This document shows, piece after piece, positions 3,028 to 13,713 of a DNA stretch of 64,000 nucleotides. The stretch's first letter is position 1. Every line of letters begins with the position of its first letter. The notes beneath the pieces are model-generated. The model ran no database searches. It saw only the letters and a program-made list of their open reading frames with translations, and was not told where the DNA came from. This DNA is from a virus, in the IMG/VR virus record IMGVR_UViG_3300033146_000850, positions 1-64,000 of that record. One strand, given 5' to 3'. The position numbers were made by a program, and so were the translations under genes.

Positions 3028-5406
3028 ATGTTAATTTTTGAAAAAGTCGATGAGGTTTATTTTATAGTCAAATCAGATTCACCTGAAAATTTTACAGAGT
3101 TACAAGAATTATATTTTGCATTTATATTAGAACATCCTGATAAATATTTTATACCAGCGTATAAAAATGGTGGTTGGGATGGTAAAGTTAAATTTATAAA
3201 ATATTTAGATTCTTTTAGAGAAACAGCTCTTGCACCAATTGGGTTGTTTCATAAAATGTATAAATTTATGAAAAGTAATAATATTGAATTTGAAATTATA
3301 AATGATGATATTGGTATAAATAAAGTCGATTTGAGCGATTTTGATTCTTGGTTAAGCGAGATTGAAAAAGGTAAAACTAAAAAGATATCTAGTAGAGAAT
3401 ATCAATATAATGCTGTTAAAAATGCGTTAATTGTTAATAGAGGTATATTACAAAGTCCTACAGGTTGTCACGCTAAAGGTGATAAAGTTTTCACTAATGA
3501 TGGTGTATTGAAAAAAGTAGAAGATATTGTAGAGGGTGATTTTCTGTTTGGAATTGATGGTCAATATAAAGAAGTTTTGAGTTTATTTAATGGATATGAT
3601 GATTTATATGAAATTAAACCATTTGGAAGTGATATTGGGTTCACAGTTAATTCTGAACACGTTTTACCTTTATACTATGACAATAATATTATTGAGTTAA
3701 CAGTTCATGAGTTTTTAGCTAAGGATGATTCATTTAAAGAACATTGTCAAATATTTTATAATAAAGAAAAACTCAATTTTTCTTTACAGAATGATGAATA
3801 TATAATAGATTCCCCTTATCATATTGGTGAATATTTTGGTCAGATGTTTAATGATAACGCTATTAATGATGAAAATGATGAATATTTGTATTATTTGAAT
3901 GATATTTTATTTAAAACTAGTGTTAATTTTAGGTTGGAATTATTAGCTGGTATGTTAGATTCAGGTGGAGATTTAATTGATAACAATTCAAAGTTTTCAT
4001 TTTCATCATCCTCTAAGTCATTTATTGATAATATGCATATGATATCTATATCTTTGGGTTATATATGTTCAATAAATATAGACTATGATAATATTGATAA
4101 ACATATTATAACTATTAGTGGTAACATATCTAGTATTCCAACCAAAAATAAACAAATTAACCACGAGTATATTGACAATTATAAAAATGGTTTTGATATT
4201 ATAAAAAAAGGATATGGTGAATATTATGGTTTCACTGTTAAGGATTCATTATATTTGACTGAAAGTGGTATAATTACTAAAAATAGTGGTAAAAGTTTAA
4301 TAATATATACTTATATTTCTTGGATTTTAACACACGAGTTTAAACCTGGTGAAAAACTATTATTAGTTGTTCCATCAACATCTCTAGTTGAACAGATGAC
4401 TAATGATTTTGTGGAGTATGGGTTTAATGAAAAATATATATCTAAAATTTATTCAGGTCAAACAAAGAATTTTAATAATCCTATTATAATTTCAACGTGG
4501 CAAAGTTTATTTAGAAACGATATTGATTTTTTTGAACAATTCTCTTGTGTTATAATTGATGAAGCACATAAAGCAAAAGCAAAACAAATGATGTATATAT
4601 CTGAAAATTGCATCAATGCAAGATTTAGATTGGCTACAACTGGAACTCTTCATAAACAAAAATTTATGAAATGGTCTGTAATGGCGAACTTTGGTCCTGT
4701 ATTTAAAACTAGTACAACATCATCTCTAATTAAATCTGGATTTTTAACCGATTTCCATATACGAAACATTGTTATAAATTGGAAAAAAGTGAATTGTAAA
4801 AAAATTAAAAGGTTTGATATAGATGATTATCAAGATGAGTTTAAACATATTCTTAATAATGAAAATAGAATGGATATGGTGATTACTTTTTTGGTTAATT
4901 TATGGGACGATAGAGACATTGCAAAATCAACTTTATTAGTAATGGGTAGAAGAGTTGCGTATATTGAATTTTTATTTTCTAAAATAAAAGATAAAATTGA
5001 TGGTGATGTGTTTTTTATTCACGGTAAAGTTAAAACATCTGATAGACTTAAAATAATAGAACACGTTAAAAAATATGGTGGCATGATTATTGCAAATATA
5101 GATATTATGGGAACTGGTATTAATATTCCAAATGTTTCAACTATTGTATTTGCCAATCCAGTGAAGTCAGATATATTATTATTACAAACAATTGGAAGGT
5201 CTATTAGGTTGTCGGAAGGTAAAACTTTTGCTATGATATATGATTTAGTTGATAAGATACCTATTAAAAATAAATCTGAAAATACTGTATATAGTTGGTT
5301 AGGACGAAAAAATGAGATTTATCAAGAGCAAGGGTTTAAATATGACACTATAAATGTTGATTTGAATTGTGATTGTGAGACCAAATTTGATATTTTAAAA
5401 ATATAA
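3028..5406 (+). CDS. uvsW: UvsW-like ATP-dependent helicase, interrupted by an intein
   Basis: UvsW is a superfamily 2 helicase that unwinds branched DNA and R-loops and helps switch T4 from origin to recombination-dependent replication. The precursor is 792 aa. Removing residues 147-419 leaves 519 aa, close to T4 UvsW (503). The P-loop SPTG/SGKS is split: SPTG ends at residue 146 and SGKS starts at 420. Other helicase signatures are present: the DEAH box (IIDEAHK, 511-514), ATTGT (motif III) and QTIGRSIR (motif VI). The N-terminal part (FIPAYKNGGWDGKVKFI) matches the UvsW DNA-binding domain. Unless the intein splices, the ATPase cannot form, so activity depends on protein splicing. The ribosome site is weak (GTGAG). 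Confidence 0.9.
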   Translation: MLIFEKVDEVYFIVKSDSPENFTELQELYFAFILEHPDKYFIPAYKNGGWDGKVKFIKYLDSFRETALAPIGLFHKMYKFMKSNNIEFEIINDDIGINKVDLSDFDSWLSEIEKGKTKKISSREYQYNAVKNALIVNRGILQSPTGCHAKGDKVFTNDGVLKKVEDIVEGDFLFGIDGQYKEVLSLFNGYDDLYEIKPFGSDIGFTVNSEHVLPLYYDNNIIELTVHEFLAKDDSFKEHCQIFYNKEKLNFSLQNDEYIIDSPYHIGEYFGQMFNDNAINDENDEYLYYLNDILFKTSVNFRLELLAGMLDSGGDLIDNNSKFSFSSSSKSFIDNMHMISISLGYICSINIDYDNIDKHIITISGNISSIPTKNKQINHEYIDNYKNGFDIIKKGYGEYYGFTVKDSLYLTESGIITKNSGKSLIIYTYISWILTHEFKPGEKLLLVVPSTSLVEQMTNDFVEYGFNEKYISKIYSGQTKNFNNPIIISTWQSLFRNDIDFFEQFSCVIIDEAHKAKAKQMMYISENCINARFRLATTGTLHKQKFMKWSVMANFGPVFKTSTTSSLIKSGFLTDFHIRNIVINWKKVNCKKIKRFDIDDYQDEFKHILNNENRMDMVITFLVNLWDDRDIAKSTLLVMGRRVAYIEFLFSKIKDKIDGDVFFIHGKVKTSDRLKIIEHVKKYGGMIIANIDIMGTGINIPNVSTIVFANPVKSDILLLQTIGRSIRLSEGKTFAMIYDLVDKIPIKNKSENTVYSWLGRKNEIYQEQGFKYDTINVDLNCDCETKFDILKI
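3466..4284 (+). mobile_element. Intein in the Walker A motif of UvsW, with degenerate LAGLIDADG nuclease
   Basis: A 273-residue in-frame insert begins with Cys (CHAKGDKVFTNDG, block A) and ends with Asn (SGIITKN, blocks F/G), followed by a Ser +1 residue, as in class 1 inteins. Block B appears as VNSEHVLPL, with Asn where Thr is usual. The residue before the terminal Asn is Lys rather than His. Two LAGLIDADG-like segments can be seen, at intein residues ~119-131 (IGEYFGQMFNDNA) and ~159-170 (LLAGMLDSGGDL). In the second, the usual catalytic Asp position is Gly, so homing activity is probably lost while splicing is likely kept. Confidence 0.88.
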
Positions 5407-6753: not shown

Positions 6754-8625
6754 ATGAGTGGATACAAAGGACAATTAAATGACTCAAAGAGTAAATTAAA
6801 AGTCATTCGATTAGGACATATGTACTCTGATATGATAACAGAGTTAAAAAAGGCTATATCTAGAGTACCTTTAAATAATGATTATGAGGTTCATTTTAGG
6901 TTCCCTGGTAATATATTTTTTAATAGTACTAAAGATATAAATGATTCCTCAAGGTCAATTAATGAATCACCATCAACTCCAACCGCAGTTAATCCTGTAA
7001 AGGATGATTCTATTAATCAGAAATATAATACTGAAACTATAAAATATATAGAGGAACGAATACCATTTTTAACAAAAAATGTTACGGGATTCGATGAGAG
7101 TATTGATGTTAAAACTGTTAAAATTTTAAATAGGGACTGGAATTTTGCAACTAATCAGAATTTTAGTGAATTAACTATAACGTTTTATGATATGTATGTT
7201 CAAAATAAAGATGGTATATCAGAGTGGGTGTCTATTAGTGAACTATTTAAGACCTGGATGGATAATATTTTTTATAATCCTGGGGATGAATTATATAAAA
7301 CATATTCGACTGTTAGTAATTATTTTGATAGCTATGTTATACCTGAATTGGATATTTTACAATTCAGTAGAAGGTTAGAGATTACCGATATTGACCATTT
7401 AATTTTAGATAATAAGATAACAGAAGATAATAGAATGAGTCAATTAGATGTTAAAAAGAAAAAAAATTATTATAAAGAATGGTTAGAAGATGAATATGGG
7501 GATAATATATATCTTGCAGGATATCTTAATGATTTACAAAAAAGAAGAAAGACTAAAACTGGTGTTATTGGTATTATTGGGGATATAGCTACACCTATTA
7601 ATAATATGATAAATGCTGTAGCATTAACATCTGACGTAGTTTCCAATTTCTCAAAAGGTGAATCTGAAAACATTGAAAAATATAAAGATGGGTTATCCAT
7701 AGCAGGTAAGAAATTGTATGAAGATTTTTTTAATGATTTTAGTAAAATAAAAGAAGGTATTCCTAAAGAAGATATTGGTAAATTGTTTGGTCAAGAGCAT
7801 CTAAAAGGATTGCGTGATAATATATCATCAGGTGGAACAACAACATCATCACCATTCGGTGTGAAATTAGAAAAGGCATCTTATCATTTATATGCTAACT
7901 TTTATAATCATTTTAAATCTATACAAGATAAATATTCTAATAATGGAAATTCAAAACTTAATTTAGCATCTCTATTAGACAAAGAAAATTTGAAAAAATG
8001 TAGTGGTAAAGCTATTAGTAAAGCAATAAAACAAGCACAAGATGATGCTGAACCTAAATTTTTTGGGTTCGATACACCAATAGATGAGATATTGTCTGTA
8101 ATGGGGTTTTTATCGACTGCATATTCTTTATATGATTTAGCGAAAGTGTTATTGTGGAGTATAAAACCAGATAGTCCGGTTAATCCTGATTGGGTTGCTG
8201 GAGGTAACGAGTCAATATTGAAAACAGATTCTGGCTTGCTTAAACAAGGTGCATCAGCCGTGGTTGGTGATAGATTTTTAACTACTGATTTTATAGATAA
8301 CTCCGTTAGTGCTATACTTGATTATTTAAAAAATAATGAAAATATACTTGATAAAAAGTATGAAAATCTTTTCGAGTTCCCTATAAATTGGGATAATTAT
8401 AGTTTTTTAAAAGATGATGAACGATATTCTAATGCTGGTATACTTAGTAAAAATAATGAAAGTAATTTGGAAGATGATTATATATATATAAACCCAATAA
8501 AAACTTTTAGGTTTTATGACCTTTATCCTGTGGGTGTGTTTTATAATAATCTGAGTTATGATAGTGAGAATGAATTAACAACATTTGATGTTAAATTCAA
8601 ATATACTCATTTTGAACAAAAATAA
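6754..8625 (+). CDS. Baseplate tail-tube cap/initiator-like protein (gp48/gp54 type)
   Basis: The last ~45 residues (TFRFYDLYPVGVFYNNLSYD, then SENELTTFDVKFKYT) match the end of the T4 tail-tube fold (KGLWPTNVGELQLDWDSNNE, then IQTFEVTLALDYW in gp19). A second tube-like strand set occurs near residues 110-150 (TVKILNRDWNFATNQNF...LTITFYDMYV). In T4, gp48 and gp54 use this fold to cap the baseplate hub and start the tube. This protein is 623 aa, much longer than gp48 (364) or gp54 (320). The extra ~350 residues in the middle include a helical region and a hydrophobic stretch (GVIGIIGDIATPINNMINAV). AGGTGG precedes the start and only one base separates it from the primase stop. Confidence 0.6.
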   Translation: MSGYKGQLNDSKSKLKVIRLGHMYSDMITELKKAISRVPLNNDYEVHFRFPGNIFFNSTKDINDSSRSINESPSTPTAVNPVKDDSINQKYNTETIKYIEERIPFLTKNVTGFDESIDVKTVKILNRDWNFATNQNFSELTITFYDMYVQNKDGISEWVSISELFKTWMDNIFYNPGDELYKTYSTVSNYFDSYVIPELDILQFSRRLEITDIDHLILDNKITEDNRMSQLDVKKKKNYYKEWLEDEYGDNIYLAGYLNDLQKRRKTKTGVIGIIGDIATPINNMINAVALTSDVVSNFSKGESENIEKYKDGLSIAGKKLYEDFFNDFSKIKEGIPKEDIGKLFGQEHLKGLRDNISSGGTTTSSPFGVKLEKASYHLYANFYNHFKSIQDKYSNNGNSKLNLASLLDKENLKKCSGKAISKAIKQAQDDAEPKFFGFDTPIDEILSVMGFLSTAYSLYDLAKVLLWSIKPDSPVNPDWVAGGNESILKTDSGLLKQGASAVVGDRFLTTDFIDNSVSAILDYLKNNENILDKKYENLFEFPINWDNYSFLKDDERYSNAGILSKNNESNLEDDYIYINPIKTFRFYDLYPVGVFYNNLSYDSENELTTFDVKFKYTHFEQK

Positions 8626-8684: not shown

Positions 8685-9419
8685 ATGATAGATTTAAAGA
8701 GTATTAGTGATTCATTGAATGATTTTAATTTTTCTACGATTATACCTTCAACAGGTGAAGTTATAAATGGTAGACCTTATACGGTAAAAGATGAGTTTAA
8801 ACTTACACAACTACAAACAATAGATGATAAAAAAATAATATTAGATACATTGTTTAATATAGTCAAAGATAAATATTATTCATTAACAGAGAATCAAATA
8901 TCCCAGTTAACATTGGTTGATGTTCAATATCTATTAGCTCAATTGAAGAAAAATAGTGACGATGGAGAAATTCCAATAATCGTTACTTGTACAAAATGTG
9001 AAAAAGAATTTGAACATTCTTTAAATTTGACAAAAATAGATATTAATAATAATAATTTCAAAAAAAATATTAAAATAACTAGTGATAAATTACAACACGA
9101 TTTAACTATCACTATGAATACTATGAGATATATTGATGTTAGTGAAAAATATTTAAAAAATTCAAATAATACCGGAGATATTGAAAATATTTTAATAGAT
9201 TGTATTGAGAGTATTTCTTTTGGTGATGAAATGTCAACTGAATTTACAACTGAGGAATTGAAAATGTTATTAAGTAATATTCCTCATAAGTATTATAGTG
9301 AATTTACCACATTTTTATCTGAAACTCCTGAATTAATATATAAAGATAATGTTCAGTGTACGCACTGCGGTGAGAAGAACACCATTGGTATTGATGATTT
9401 TTTTTATTTAATTTTTTAA
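8685..9419 (+). CDS. 26: Baseplate hub/assembly protein, gp26-like (short, zero-frame product)
   Basis: The 244-residue zero-frame product has the layout of the T4 gp26 baseplate family. There is an N-terminal segment with GRPYTVKDEFKL, then LTLVDVQYLLAQLKKNS, then a CTKC pair (CxxC), and a second CxxC near the C-terminus (CTHCGEKNTIGIDDFF). GGAG lies upstream of ATG 8685. The frame ends at TAA 9417-9419, but the next 180 nt stay open in the -1 frame and encode what looks like the missing C-terminal part of the family. A longer 304-residue frameshift product is therefore likely (see the next entry). Confidence 0.75.
   Translation: MIDLKSISDSLNDFNFSTIIPSTGEVINGRPYTVKDEFKLTQLQTIDDKKIILDTLFNIVKDKYYSLTENQISQLTLVDVQYLLAQLKKNSDDGEIPIIVTCTKCEKEFEHSLNLTKIDINNNNFKKNIKITSDKLQHDLTITMNTMRYIDVSEKYLKNSNNTGDIENILIDCIESISFGDEMSTEFTTEELKMLLSNIPHKYYSEFTTFLSETPELIYKDNVQCTHCGEKNTIGIDDFFYLIF
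9398..9404 (+). promoter_or_regulatory. Putative -1 frameshift slippery heptamer (T_TTT_TTT)
   Basis: In the zero frame the codons are GAT TTT TTT TAT, giving the canonical X_XXY_YYZ heptamer. The window where a -1 shift can work is only about 20 nt, from the -1 frame TGA at 9395-9397 to the zero-frame TAA at 9417-9419, and the heptamer lies inside it. A second T6 run at 9412-9417 next to the stop is a less canonical alternative. Confidence 0.68.
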
Positions 9420-9598
9420 TATTCGGGAATGATATCCATTCATTATATCGAGAATTTTTTTATTTTGTATATTTCACCAAATGGTCTATTGAAAGCGTTA
9501 TGAAATTATATCCATTTGAAAAGGATATTTTTTATCAATTATATAATGAACAAATTGAATATGAAAACTCTGAAATAGAGAAAAATAACAAGAAGTGA
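9404..9598 (+). CDS. -1 frame extension of the gp26-like gene
   Basis: From the slippery run at 9398-9404 the -1 frame reads LFNFLIFGNDIHSLYREF and on through WSIESVMKLYPFEKDIFY to a TGA at 9596-9598, with no start codon of its own near its beginning. The pattern 'IxxxYREFF.. W/SI..V..LYPFEKDIFY..' is what I would expect after the second CxxC in longer relatives of gp26, so it appears to be real coding sequence. Shifting at the heptamer gives 240 + 64 = 304 aa. A one-base sequencing error in the T-run would look identical, but then the gene would simply be 304 aa long. Confidence 0.72.
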   Translation, partial: LFNFLIFGNDIHSLYREFFYFVYFTKWSIESVMKLYPFEKDIFYQLYNEQIEYENSEIEKNNKK

Positions 9599-9663: not shown

Positions 9664-12600
9664 ATGTCTATTACAATAAATAATACAATAATTATCGACC
9701 AACCATCTCAATTTTTAAAACGAACACAGATGGAAATATTAAATTTTAAACATATACCTGATGTTCCTAGTGATACTGTTCAATGGAAAATATTAAAAGC
9801 TCCCATTAGTAATAATGATGCAAATTATGTTGAAAATTGGGGTATAAGCCACTCTAGTAATAGTGTTAATACCAATGAGATATTAGTGTTAAATTTATCA
9901 GGGACTTATAAAATAGAAATAGAAGAGACTATAAATGGTGTTAATAGAAAATATGTGCTAGCCATTCAATGTGAATCACTTAAAGAATCTATTTCGACAC
10001 CATTTCCAGGTGAAACAATTGAAGTAAATGATGTTGATGGTTGGGCAAGAAAGGTAGAGGATTCAATACAATCATTAGCTCAAAATGAGGGTTGTTTTAG
10101 TGTTATTGGGTCTAATAATTCACAATCTTATGTTGTTGGTGACCTTGTCGTGGTCGATTCTATTAATAATAAAATAGTGTCTGGGTTTATATATGGTTTA
10201 AATTCGTTAAATGATGCTTACAGTGTGGTCGGATATAATTCTACAATAGGTATAGTTGTGGATGTTATTGATGATTCTGGAGATGTTGTATATTCTGCTG
10301 GTCGTCCTTTTTATAGAGTGTTGATGGAGGGTGCTTATAAATTAAATAGTTCTATACCACCATTTAATTCAACATCTTGTAGTATTTTTTATGATACTGT
10401 AAATCACGAGTTGAGTTCTGATTATACTAAGGGTTATTATGTTGGTAAATATTTTTATAATAGTGGTGATGGTGCATTCATCATAATTGAAAATCAGATT
10501 TTAATGGATTATGAGAATGAGGTATCCCCTTTTGGTTTCTTTTATAATACTAAAAATTTTGAGGTTGCAAGTTGGATATCTGATTCAGGTATTATTAAAA
10601 TAGATTTTATACATAATTTAAATTCATCCAATATTATAGTAGAAATATGGAACGAATCTAATTCGGCTGATATATTTAGAGTTAATCCATTAAAAGTATT
10701 AAAAATAGATAATAATAATATTTCAATACATATGAATCCAGGTCAAGAGTTTGATGGTAGAATTAACATAATTAGAATCGATTCGGATACAGCTGTTCCT
10801 GTTAGTAATATTATCGATGTCCAATTAGATGGTATTAGCTCATCACAAAAGGATTCTCTTAATTTTATCACTGGAGATAATGTTTCATTGGTTATTACTG
10901 ATAATAATATAAACGGAAGAGCAGATATAACTATTAATGCTGAACAACCATTGAGATTAGAAGCTAATCACGATATTAGTCATAGTATGCAAGGTAGCAT
11001 TACATTTACATCATATGCACTGGGTACATTTGATAATCCATTTTATGTTAACGGTGAATATATTTACACCGCTAGTAGAGATATTAATGGTGGAACTCAC
11101 TTAATAATAAATAATATGACAATTGACCCTCCATATATTGGATTTATAAATCAATTGAATAGCCATAATAATACATATGATTTTGATTACTTCATAGGTT
11201 CGACTATTCATAATATATATGCTAAAGACGGCTATGTTTTTGTTACTAGTGATACTAGTAACTCTGATACTACACCAATTATTAGAGTGTATGATGAGTT
11301 GAGTAATAAACACATTATGAATATTCAAATTTTTAATTTGGGAGATTTTGTTAAAGATATGTTCTTATATGATGATTCATTATTCATATTAAAAACAAAC
11401 GGAACAGAGTCTTTAATTCGAAATTATAATTTAACAACTCAAAATTATACGGATATTGTTACATCTATATCCAATAATGCTTTTGGTCTAAAATGTGATG
11501 ACGGGATTATGTATCTTGGATATGATGATAGCATTGCTAATGATAGATATATAGTTGAAGAATATGATATGCTATCATCAGGTTTAGTCAATACTTATAA
11601 TTTACCAATACCATCAGGTTATATTATTTATAATTATCCTGATTTTGATGTATATAATGGAAATATATATATTGGATATTCTGAGGTGTCAAGCGATGAT
11701 TTTATTATTAGTGTTTTTAATATTTTAAGTTCGAATGTTGTTATTTTAAATACTAATGTGAGTTGTAAAACATACACTGGTCTATTTCAGGTTATAGATG
11801 ACACTACTATACAATTGTTAAATGATGAAAATAAGGTGGATGAATGGACTTATGATTTAACAACACCTACAATGACCATTAATATTGAGCGACCTTTAAA
11901 GTTTATAGAATCTATTCATTTATCTATGTTAGAGTATAATCAAGTATTATCATTAATTGCTAATGGTGAGTTGTTTATGACGGATTCTAATACAATATTT
12001 ACTTCTACCTCACATGTTGAAAAATCTTTTATAGTTGGCTCATATCAAATGGATAATGTTGCGAATCCATCGTGTTATAATCGAATGTTTTATGATAAAA
12101 CAAACGGTTCTTTTAGAGTTGGGAGAGCAATTTCAACCCAGTGGGATGATAGAGGTGATTATAGCTTCGTTGCAGGTAGAAATTGCTTATCTTCCGGTGA
12201 TTTTAATTTTGTCGGTGGGGACGAATCAAGTGTACATTCGAGTTCTAATTATAACTCCGTGTGGGGTGAGCGTTGTGATGTTACAGACTCCAGTTATAAT
12301 AGCATTGTTGGAACTACTCATAATGTGGATACATCAGCTTTTAATATTATAATTGGAGGTAGTATCCATCTTGAAGATTCTAATTATAGTAATATTACTG
12401 GTTTCAATATTAACCTACAGTGTTCTGCTTATAATAATATTACTGGAATAAGTAATAATATTATAGGTTTGGATGGGTTTAATTTAGCTAGGTATAATAA
12501 TGTTATAGGTCATGGAAATATAGTCAATACCTCTAGTTATAATATTATTAATGGGGAGGATAACAACGTTGATGATTCTGATTATAACATTGTTAGTGGT

Positions 12601-13713
12601 GATGGTCACGATGTTGTTGGTTCTATTGGTAACAGTATTAGTGGGTCTAATCATAATACTGATGATACTCATCGTAACGGTATTAGTGGGAATGGTCACA
12701 ATATTGATGGTTCCAATAATAACAGTATTAGTGGGGATGGTCACATAATTAATAATTCTATTGATAACAGTATTAGTGGGAAGGATAACAACGTTAATGG
12801 TTCCAATTATAACATTATTAGTGGGGTTAGTCACATAATTAATAATTCTACTGATAACAGTATTATTGGGTATAGTCACACTATTGATGATTCCTCTCAT
12901 AATAGTATTAGTGGGTATGGTCACGATATTGATGATTCCTATAATAACAGTATAAGTGGTGATACTCACGATATTGATGATTCCTCTCATAATAGTATTA
13001 GTGGGTATGGTCACGATATTGATGATTCCTCTCATAATAGTATTAGTGGGTATGGTAACGATATTGATGATTCCGATTCTAACAGTATAAGTGGAGATAT
13101 TCACAGTATTAATAATTCTAGTAATAATAGTATTAGTGGGTATGGTCACGATATTGATAATTCTGATTATAACATTATTAGTGGGTTTAATAATAAATGT
13201 AACGATTTTAATTCAAGTTTAATTGTTGGTAGTTATGGACTTATTACTAGTAATAATTCTATAACATTAAGTAATCAACTAGAAACTATTACTGGTGAGT
13301 ATGGATTGTCTCAAAATGTCAATATCGTTATGTCTAAAATAACAAATAATATGACCGAGCAACCTATGGAAATAAATGGATTGGATTATATATATATACC
13401 TGACAATGTTGCGTTTATTGTTGAAATATATGCTGTTGGGCAAACAACGACACCAGGGTCTAGTATACTTCCAGTTTCTACACATATGATTGCCAGTGGA
13501 TATACTGCACCTATAAACAATAGCGATGGTGGTAGTAATGGATTAGTTGCAACTTCTATTTCTGGGACTACAAGTGAATTTGATGTTAGAATGACAGCTA
13601 TGCATCAATTACAGATATTTGTTTCAGCACCACATAATATGGAGACTTATAGATGGTCTGCTAATGTTAATATAACTATGATTGGAGGGGTTAATGCCCA
13701 TATATCATCATAA
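9664..13713 (+). CDS. Large tail-fibre/adhesin with YadA-like beta-roll repeats
   Basis: A 1349-residue virion protein with GAGG upstream of ATG 9664. Residues ~1-450 are beta-rich with no motif I recognise. Residues ~450-780 look like a beta-propeller-like region (repeated DGxMYLGYDDS / VYNGNIYIGYSE type strands). Residues ~830-1175 consist of roughly two dozen short repeats of the form N-x-I-x-G-x-x-x-x-I-x-x-S-x-x, resembling the left-handed beta-roll head of trimeric autotransporter adhesins such as YadA. The last ~170 residues are a distinct beta domain, perhaps the trimerising or receptor-binding tip. No signal peptide, as expected for a phage structural protein. It probably forms a trimeric fibre. 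Confidence 0.7.
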   Translation: MSITINNTIIIDQPSQFLKRTQMEILNFKHIPDVPSDTVQWKILKAPISNNDANYVENWGISHSSNSVNTNEILVLNLSGTYKIEIEETINGVNRKYVLAIQCESLKESISTPFPGETIEVNDVDGWARKVEDSIQSLAQNEGCFSVIGSNNSQSYVVGDLVVVDSINNKIVSGFIYGLNSLNDAYSVVGYNSTIGIVVDVIDDSGDVVYSAGRPFYRVLMEGAYKLNSSIPPFNSTSCSIFYDTVNHELSSDYTKGYYVGKYFYNSGDGAFIIIENQILMDYENEVSPFGFFYNTKNFEVASWISDSGIIKIDFIHNLNSSNIIVEIWNESNSADIFRVNPLKVLKIDNNNISIHMNPGQEFDGRINIIRIDSDTAVPVSNIIDVQLDGISSSQKDSLNFITGDNVSLVITDNNINGRADITINAEQPLRLEANHDISHSMQGSITFTSYALGTFDNPFYVNGEYIYTASRDINGGTHLIINNMTIDPPYIGFINQLNSHNNTYDFDYFIGSTIHNIYAKDGYVFVTSDTSNSDTTPIIRVYDELSNKHIMNIQIFNLGDFVKDMFLYDDSLFILKTNGTESLIRNYNLTTQNYTDIVTSISNNAFGLKCDDGIMYLGYDDSIANDRYIVEEYDMLSSGLVNTYNLPIPSGYIIYNYPDFDVYNGNIYIGYSEVSSDDFIISVFNILSSNVVILNTNVSCKTYTGLFQVIDDTTIQLLNDENKVDEWTYDLTTPTMTINIERPLKFIESIHLSMLEYNQVLSLIANGELFMTDSNTIFTSTSHVEKSFIVGSYQMDNVANPSCYNRMFYDKTNGSFRVGRAISTQWDDRGDYSFVAGRNCLSSGDFNFVGGDESSVHSSSNYNSVWGERCDVTDSSYNSIVGTTHNVDTSAFNIIIGGSIHLEDSNYSNITGFNINLQCSAYNNITGISNNIIGLDGFNLARYNNVIGHGNIVNTSSYNIINGEDNNVDDSDYNIVSGDGHDVVGSIGNSISGSNHNTDDTHRNGISGNGHNIDGSNNNSISGDGHIINNSIDNSISGKDNNVNGSNYNIISGVSHIINNSTDNSIIGYSHTIDDSSHNSISGYGHDIDDSYNNSISGDTHDIDDSSHNSISGYGHDIDDSSHNSISGYGNDIDDSDSNSISGDIHSINNSSNNSISGYGHDIDNSDYNIISGFNNKCNDFNSSLIVGSYGLITSNNSITLSNQLETITGEYGLSQNVNIVMSKITNNMTEQPMEINGLDYIYIPDNVAFIVEIYAVGQTTTPGSSILPVSTHMIASGYTAPINNSDGGSNGLVATSISGTTSEFDVRMTAMHQLQIFVSAPHNMETYRWSANVNITMIGGVNAHISS
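12151..13191 (+). repeat. ~45-bp coding repeats (beta-roll units) in the fibre gene
   Basis: Each unit is 15 codons (about 14-16 in the earlier, more diverged ones). Near-identical units occur around 12901, 12991 and 13036 (AATAGTATTAGTGGGTATGG start), showing recent duplication. Units toward the 5' end are older and more diverged. Unit number could vary by slippage or recombination and change fibre length. Confidence 0.8.

What the first reader, a model, noticed from the sequence alone, without database searches (positions are those of the whole stretch)
9395..9598. Probable programmed -1 frameshift in a gp26-like baseplate gene
The zero frame ends at 9417-9419 right after the second CxxC region, but the -1 frame continues for 60 codons with a coherent C-terminal segment (YREFF..., LYPFEKDIFY). 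A canonical T_TTT_TTT heptamer at 9398-9404 lies inside the only 20-nt window where the shift can occur (-1 TGA at 9395, zero-frame TAA at 9417). This recalls lambda G/GT-type tail assembly genes, where two product lengths are made at a set ratio. No such event is generally described for the T4 gp26 family.
Basis: partly seen in the sequence, partly recalled or inferred. Interest (0 to 1): 0.75.

Follow-up and report, generated by a model that had tools for sequence, protein, structure and literature searches.

The report
Frameshifted tail-assembly chaperone gene (gp26/gp51)
A T4-like phage appears to make a short and a long version of a tail-assembly helper protein from one gene by having some ribosomes slip back one base; the finding is real, but the same slip site is found throughout this phage group and has been described before.

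Summary
The zero frame (8685-9419, 244 aa) is a gp26-family protein. The -1 frame, open 9398-9598, is not an anonymous tail: it matches the gp51 family ("baseplate hub assembly catalyst"). T_TTT_TTT at 9398-9404 is in register between the -1 TGA (9395) and the zero-frame TAA (9417). Slipping there gives a 304-aa gp26-gp51 fusion.

The layout is conserved. In two surveys, started from gp26 or from gp51, every evaluable split-gene locus (83 of 83 and 74 of 74 unique; at least six contigs shared) has gp51 in the -1 frame and an in-register T_TTT_TTN. Synonymous codon use at the site is fixed, and the -1 extension evolves as coding sequence. A sequencing error is therefore very unlikely.

Best reading: gp26 is the short tail-assembly chaperone (TAC-N) and the fusion is the long one (TAC-NC), as in lambda G/GT. 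This was proposed for T4-like phages by Vladimirov, Gautam and Davidson (Virology 2022), seen here only through citing papers.

Local peculiarities are minor: no upstream Shine-Dalgarno-like element, no downstream hairpin, and an adhesin-like gene directly downstream. New member of a known kind.

The parts
8685..9419 (+). gp26-like gene, zero frame, 244 aa: short tail-assembly chaperone (TAC-N)
   Evidence: PF12322 T4_baseplate E=6.4e-28 over residues 15-240; phrog_150 baseplate hub E=1.3e-26; AlphaFold2 model pLDDT 88 with close Foldseek matches to gp26-type baseplate hub proteins
9395..9397 (+). TGA in the -1 frame: 5' limit of the region in which a -1 shift can act
9398..9404 (+). slippery heptamer T_TTT_TTT (first 7 bases of an 8-T run 9398-9405)
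   Evidence: in register; in-register T_TTT_TTN in 83/83 and 74/74 unique split-gene loci
9417..9419 (+). zero-frame stop TAA of the short product; 3' limit of the shift region
9404..9598 (+). -1 frame extension, 64 codons after the slip plus TGA stop: gp51 homologue, C-terminal domain of the long product (TAC-C); the fusion 8685-9404 + 9404-9598 is 304 aa
   Evidence: phrog_634 E=2.2e-10 and phrog_23772 E=3.3e-4; aligned with relatives; coding-type substitutions in relatives
9412..9417 (+). second T run (6 T) ending in the first base of the stop codon; a possible secondary slip point, not conserved in relatives
   Evidence: relatives have the site at the DFF codons

Best explanation
[quoted passage not shown] Most ribosomes read the zero frame and make the 244-aa gp26-like TAC-N. 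A fraction, whose two Phe-tRNAs re-pair one base back on T_TTT_TTT at 9398-9404, skip the TAA and continue in -1, adding the gp51 domain (TAC-C) to give a 304-aa TAC-NC. By analogy with lambda gpG/gpGT, the short form would coat the tape-measure protein and the long form would recruit tail-tube subunits, the ratio being set by slip efficiency. Shown here: sequence layout, conservation, homology, selection on both frames. Inferred: that slipping occurs in vivo, its efficiency, and the chaperone role.
For: Extension = gp51 family. All four nearest named relatives have the same two-frame layout. 83/83 unique loci fetched from the gp26 side have gp51 in -1 with in-register T_TTT_TTC (39), T_TTT_TTT (38) or T_TTT_TTA (6); 74/74 fetched from the gp51 side likewise; four further named phages, including Agrobacterium and Pseudomonas phages, likewise. 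In the 83 loci the codon before the site always ends in T (about 74% elsewhere) and the first Phe codon is always TTT (70% elsewhere). In relatives the -1 extension changes mostly at codon position 3 (181/73/617 at positions 1/2/3 in 51 independent pairs). There is no conserved start codon for a separate gp51. A Tevenvirinae phage has gp26 alone plus a gp51 whose N-terminus is gp26-like and whose C-terminus matches the extension, i.e. short and long forms as two genes.
Against: No expression data. In this window no Shine-Dalgarno-like sequence upstream and no 3' structure beyond shuffles (z 0.1 to 1.0) is found, so efficiency may be low or the heptamer acts alone. The next gene is an adhesin-like repeat protein rather than a tape measure. 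The similarity of the gp26 model to the HK97 tail assembly chaperone 2OB9 is not significant (E about 2, prob about 0.2), so the chaperone role rests on the gene layout and the literature.
Confidence: 0.93

Rival explanations
1. Sequencing or assembly error: one T too many or too few in the T runs splits what is really one continuous frame.
For: The site lies in homopolymer runs (8 T and 6 T), the typical place of indel errors; the record is an uncultured virus contig.
Against: The same break at the same residue is seen in independently sequenced isolates and contigs: 83/83 and 74/74 unique loci and 4 further named phages, with fixed codon choice at the site.
Confidence: 0.02
2. gp26 and gp51 are two separate proteins; gp51 starts at its own internal start codon (as public records annotate it) and the heptamer is incidental.
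For: Public records annotate short separate gp51 genes of about 30-57 aa from an internal start; the T4 group has a separate gene 51.
Against: In the window the first ATG/GTG/TTG of the -1 frame is at 9500, after half of the conserved domain. Across relatives the first start codon has no conserved position (-18 to +31 codons from the stop, one locus with none), while the residues before it are conserved and coding. The separate gp51 in the Klebsiella phage has a gp26-like N-terminal part, i.e. it is a long form.
Confidence: 0.04
3. The shift occurs, but in this phage mainly at the second T run (9412-9417), where a ribosome waiting at the TAA slips its P-site Phe-tRNA from TTT 9414-9416 to TTT 9413-9415.
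For: The sequence allows it: a 6-T run abuts the stop codon, and the window has a longer slip-to-stop distance (19 nt) than nearly all relatives (7 or 10 nt in 76 of 83).
Against: Relatives share the heptamer at the DFF codons, which the window keeps intact.
Confidence: 0.06

Closest known systems
[quoted passage not shown] paper itself not in the library, known here from PMC10885494 and PMC12846349)
   Same: gp26-type TAC-N, gp51-type extension, poly-T -1 slippery site; some T4-like groups use two separate genes instead
   Different: Nothing categorical. This phage is divergent (gp26 21-28% identical to all relatives aligned), and its zero frame runs 4 codons past FF (YLIF) before the stop
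Lambda G/GT and the conserved frameshifted tail genes of dsDNA phages (Xu et al. 2004, cited in PMC10885494)
   Same: Short and long products sharing the N-terminus, made by -1 frameshift in a short overlap
   Different: Different protein family at sequence level; lambda uses G_GGA_AAG (from memory), here T_TTT_TTT; in this window the gene directly downstream is not a tape measure
Vandenendeviridae/Andersonviridae TAC locus (phage Adele, PMC12846349)
   Same: -1 frameshift at the end of TAC-N with a poly-T signal; downstream part misannotated as a separate gene
   Different: Different phage families; reported motif GTTTTT
T4/Tevenvirinae genes 26 and 51
   Same: Homologous short (gp26) and long (gp51 = gp26-like N-terminus + gp51 domain) proteins (tested on a Klebsiella Jiaodavirus)
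   Different: Two separate genes, no frameshift

Membership tests
gp26 family (PF12322 T4_baseplate / phrog_150) | Profile match above curated cut-off over most of the protein | tested here: met
   98.4 bits against cut-off 24.5, profile 3-218 of 219; phrog_150 E=1.3e-26
gp51 family (phrog_634) | Profile match of the -1 extension | tested here: met
   E=2.2e-10, profile 55-117 of 121
Frameshifted tail assembly chaperone (G/GT type) of T4-like phages | In-register -1 slippery heptamer between the -1 stop and the zero-frame stop | tested here: met
   9398-9404 between 9395 and 9417; conserved in all evaluable split-gene loci
Frameshifted tail assembly chaperone (G/GT type) of T4-like phages | Extension under protein-level selection in the -1 frame, with no usable start of its own | tested here: met
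   Codon-position bias in relatives, family match of the window's extension, no ATG/GTG/TTG before 9500
Frameshifted tail assembly chaperone (G/GT type) of T4-like phages | Two products made at a set ratio in vivo | not testable with these tools
   Needs expression data
Frameshifted tail assembly chaperone (G/GT type) of T4-like phages | Chaperone activity: binds the tape measure, needed for tail assembly, absent from the virion | not testable with these tools
   No solved relative found by sequence; model resembles HK97 chaperone 2OB9 only weakly
T4-type two-gene arrangement (separate genes 26 and 51) | Separate long gene with gp26-like N-terminus | tested here: not met
   One gp26-like match in the whole 126-kb record; gp51 found only as the -1 extension. 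The record may be incomplete

The most novel reading that the evidence does not exclude
In this deep-branching T4-like lineage the chaperone frameshift runs on the heptamer and T runs alone (no Shine-Dalgarno-like stimulator, no 3' hairpin), with two possible slip points, and the gene has been separated from its tape-measure gene, so the short:long ratio is tuned differently from relatives.
Probability: 0.2. Interest if true: 0.35.

Novelty: new member of a known kind. Interest (0 to 1): 0.27.

Why it matters
It extends a frameshift arrangement proposed for T4-like phages to a very divergent member, with the T_TTT_TTN site kept in every split-gene locus examined. Practically, public records annotate gp51 as a separate short gene from an internal start or omit it: none of the twelve annotated frameshift-type records opened here has a joined gene. 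The annotation of a widespread phage gene is thus systematically wrong. The lineage-specific stimulators (a hairpin in the P-HM2 group, Shine-Dalgarno-like sequences in many others, neither here) make a natural series for reporter tests of frameshift tuning.

Tried and rejected
Sequencing error: rejected by conservation. Separate gp51 start: rejected, no conserved start codon. 3' stimulatory structure in the window: tested, none; hairpins exist only in some relatives. Shine-Dalgarno-like stimulator: enriched in relatives against synonymous shuffles (mean -6.6 against -5.4 kcal/mol, z about -8, loci not independent) but absent in the window. A second candidate shift at an open frame ending 1243: rejected, the frame is a CTTTT-rich simple-sequence artefact. 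Scan with the full gp51 alignment was impossible, not conserved enough. Scan with the Desulfovibrio phage gp26 found nothing. Solved-structure searches by sequence and by fold gave nothing significant. The Vladimirov et al. paper is not held. The tape-measure gene was not identified in the rest of the record.

Full report
What is there. The zero frame runs from ATG 8685 to TAA 9417-9419 (244 aa). The -1 frame is closed by TGA 9395-9397 and then open from 9398 to TGA 9596-9598. T_TTT_TTT at 9398-9404 is in register. A slip there joins 240 zero-frame codons to 64 codons of the -1 frame, 304 aa. The window is the first half of a 126,063-base uncultured virus record.

Identity. The zero-frame protein is a full-length gp26-family protein (PF12322, E = 6.4e-28; phrog_150, E = 1.3e-26). 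The -1 extension matches phrog_634, baseplate hub assembly catalyst, i.e. gp51 (E = 2.2e-10, profile 55-117 of 121). In T4-like phages gp51 is the partner of gp26, so the two-frame layout is a gp26-gp51 fusion by frameshift, not a gp26 with an anonymous tail.

Conservation. All four named relatives found first (Synechococcus phage DSL-LC02, Aeromonas phage Ahp1_CNU-2021, Prochlorococcus phage P-HM2, phage C48C1) have the same layout: gp26 ends in ...DFF(x)stop, and gp51 lies in -1 with its open frame reaching back over the gp26 stop. A scan of IMG/VR with the gp26 alignment, blind to gp51, gave 80 loci. With the window and the named phages, every locus that holds both parts (83 unique after leaving out duplicates and contigs that end too early; the fused Klebsiella phage set apart) has gp51 in -1 and an in-register T_TTT_TTN: C 39, T 38, A 6. 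A scan from the gp51 side gave 74 of 74 unique loci of the same kind; at least six contigs occur in both sets. Four more named phages, including Agrobacterium phage Atu_ph04 and Pseudomonas phage pf16, agree.

Selection on the site. In the 83 loci the codon before the heptamer always ends in T (about 74% for comparable codons elsewhere in the same genes) and the first Phe codon is always TTT (70% elsewhere). In 51 independent pairs of related loci the -1 extension has 181, 73 and 617 substitutions at codon positions 1, 2 and 3, so it is translated in that frame. Start codons in the -1 frame occur at no conserved position. These facts exclude a sequencing error for the family and make a separately initiated gp51 very unlikely. 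The loci are related, so the percentages are not independent trials.

Stimulators. Relatives of the P-HM2 group have a GCCCTC/GAGGGC hairpin 5 nt after the heptamer (two folded examples z -3.9 and -4.5), and a few others have a longer hairpin of another sequence. Upstream sequence in relatives resembles a Shine-Dalgarno more than synonymous shuffles do. The window has neither (z 0.1, 0.5 and 1.0). Either the heptamer suffices, or an element not searched for (for instance a pseudoknot) acts. A second T run abuts the stop (9412-9417) and could allow a minor second slip point; it is not conserved.

The T4 group. Klebsiella phage vB_Kpn529046-KEN25_1 (Tevenvirinae) has a separate gp26 on the other strand that aligns along its whole length with the gp26 profile (E = 2.3e-13), and a single-frame gp51 whose N-terminal 200 residues align with the gp26 profile (E = 3.4e-7) and whose C-terminus aligns with the extension (E = 2.3e-9). 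So the same short and long proteins are there encoded by two genes.

Mechanism. Short product: zero frame to TAA. Long product: tandem slip of the two Phe-tRNAs from TTT_TTT (9399-9404) to 9398-9403, next codon TTA 9404-9406, then the gp51 domain. By analogy with lambda gpG/gpGT the short form coats the tape measure and the long form brings tube subunits; this is inferred. An AlphaFold2 model of gp26 (pLDDT 88) matches other gp26-type viral models. Against solved structures no match is significant, though the HK97 tail assembly chaperone 2OB9 is in the list with a partial fit (prob 0.21-0.23, target TM 0.45-0.47, E about 2). That is a hint, not a test.

Prior knowledge. PMC10885494 states, citing Vladimirov, Gautam and Davidson 2022 (Virology 566:9-15, doi 10.1016/j.virol.2021.11.003), that some T4-like phages carry one short gene and one longer fusion gene instead of frameshifting. 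PMC12846349 cites the same paper for poly-T -1 slippery signals in TAC-N genes of T4-like phages. The paper itself is not in the library. From memory, its abstract names T4 genes 26 and 51 and says that frameshifting appears conserved in several T4-like groups. The finding is therefore a new, divergent member of a described kind. None of the twelve annotated frameshift-type records opened here has a joined gene: gp51 is called from an internal start or left out.

Remaining doubts. No expression evidence exists for this phage or, in what I could read, for its relatives. The gene directly downstream (9664-13713) is a repeat-rich adhesin-like protein without PHROG match, and no tape measure was recognised in the record, which may be incomplete.

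Noticed in passing
window 3028-5406: UvsW-like helicase gene whose match to the helicase profile is interrupted by a long insert with intein-like ends (GCHAKGDKVFTNDGV... to ...SGIITKNSGKS), apparently an in-frame intein at the Walker A motif.
   Followed up: no
window about 790-1020: Array of CTTTT/TTCTT simple-sequence repeats in a non-coding region; it creates a spurious 163-aa open frame (752-1243).
   Followed up: partly
window 6754-8625: 623-aa protein directly upstream of gp26; only its C-terminal 54 residues match phrog_45 (tail tube). In relatives a shorter tail-tube or gp54-like gene sits in this place, so this one seems much enlarged.
   Followed up: no
window 9664-13713: 1349-aa protein with many NSISGDGHDIDDS-type repeats (adhesin or fibre-like) directly downstream of the chaperone gene, where relatives have peptidase or tape-measure-like genes.
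   Followed up: partly
L094 12975-16952 (record 116975-120952): 1325-aa protein that looks like a tail sheath (starts MSVRTSPGVYITEID), much larger than usual for T4-like sheaths.
   Followed up: no
P-HM2-like loci, e.g. L004 3669-3686: Near-invariant GCCCTC/GAGGGC hairpin 5 nt after the heptamer in this cyanophage group, a likely frameshift stimulator absent from most other groups.
   Followed up: partly
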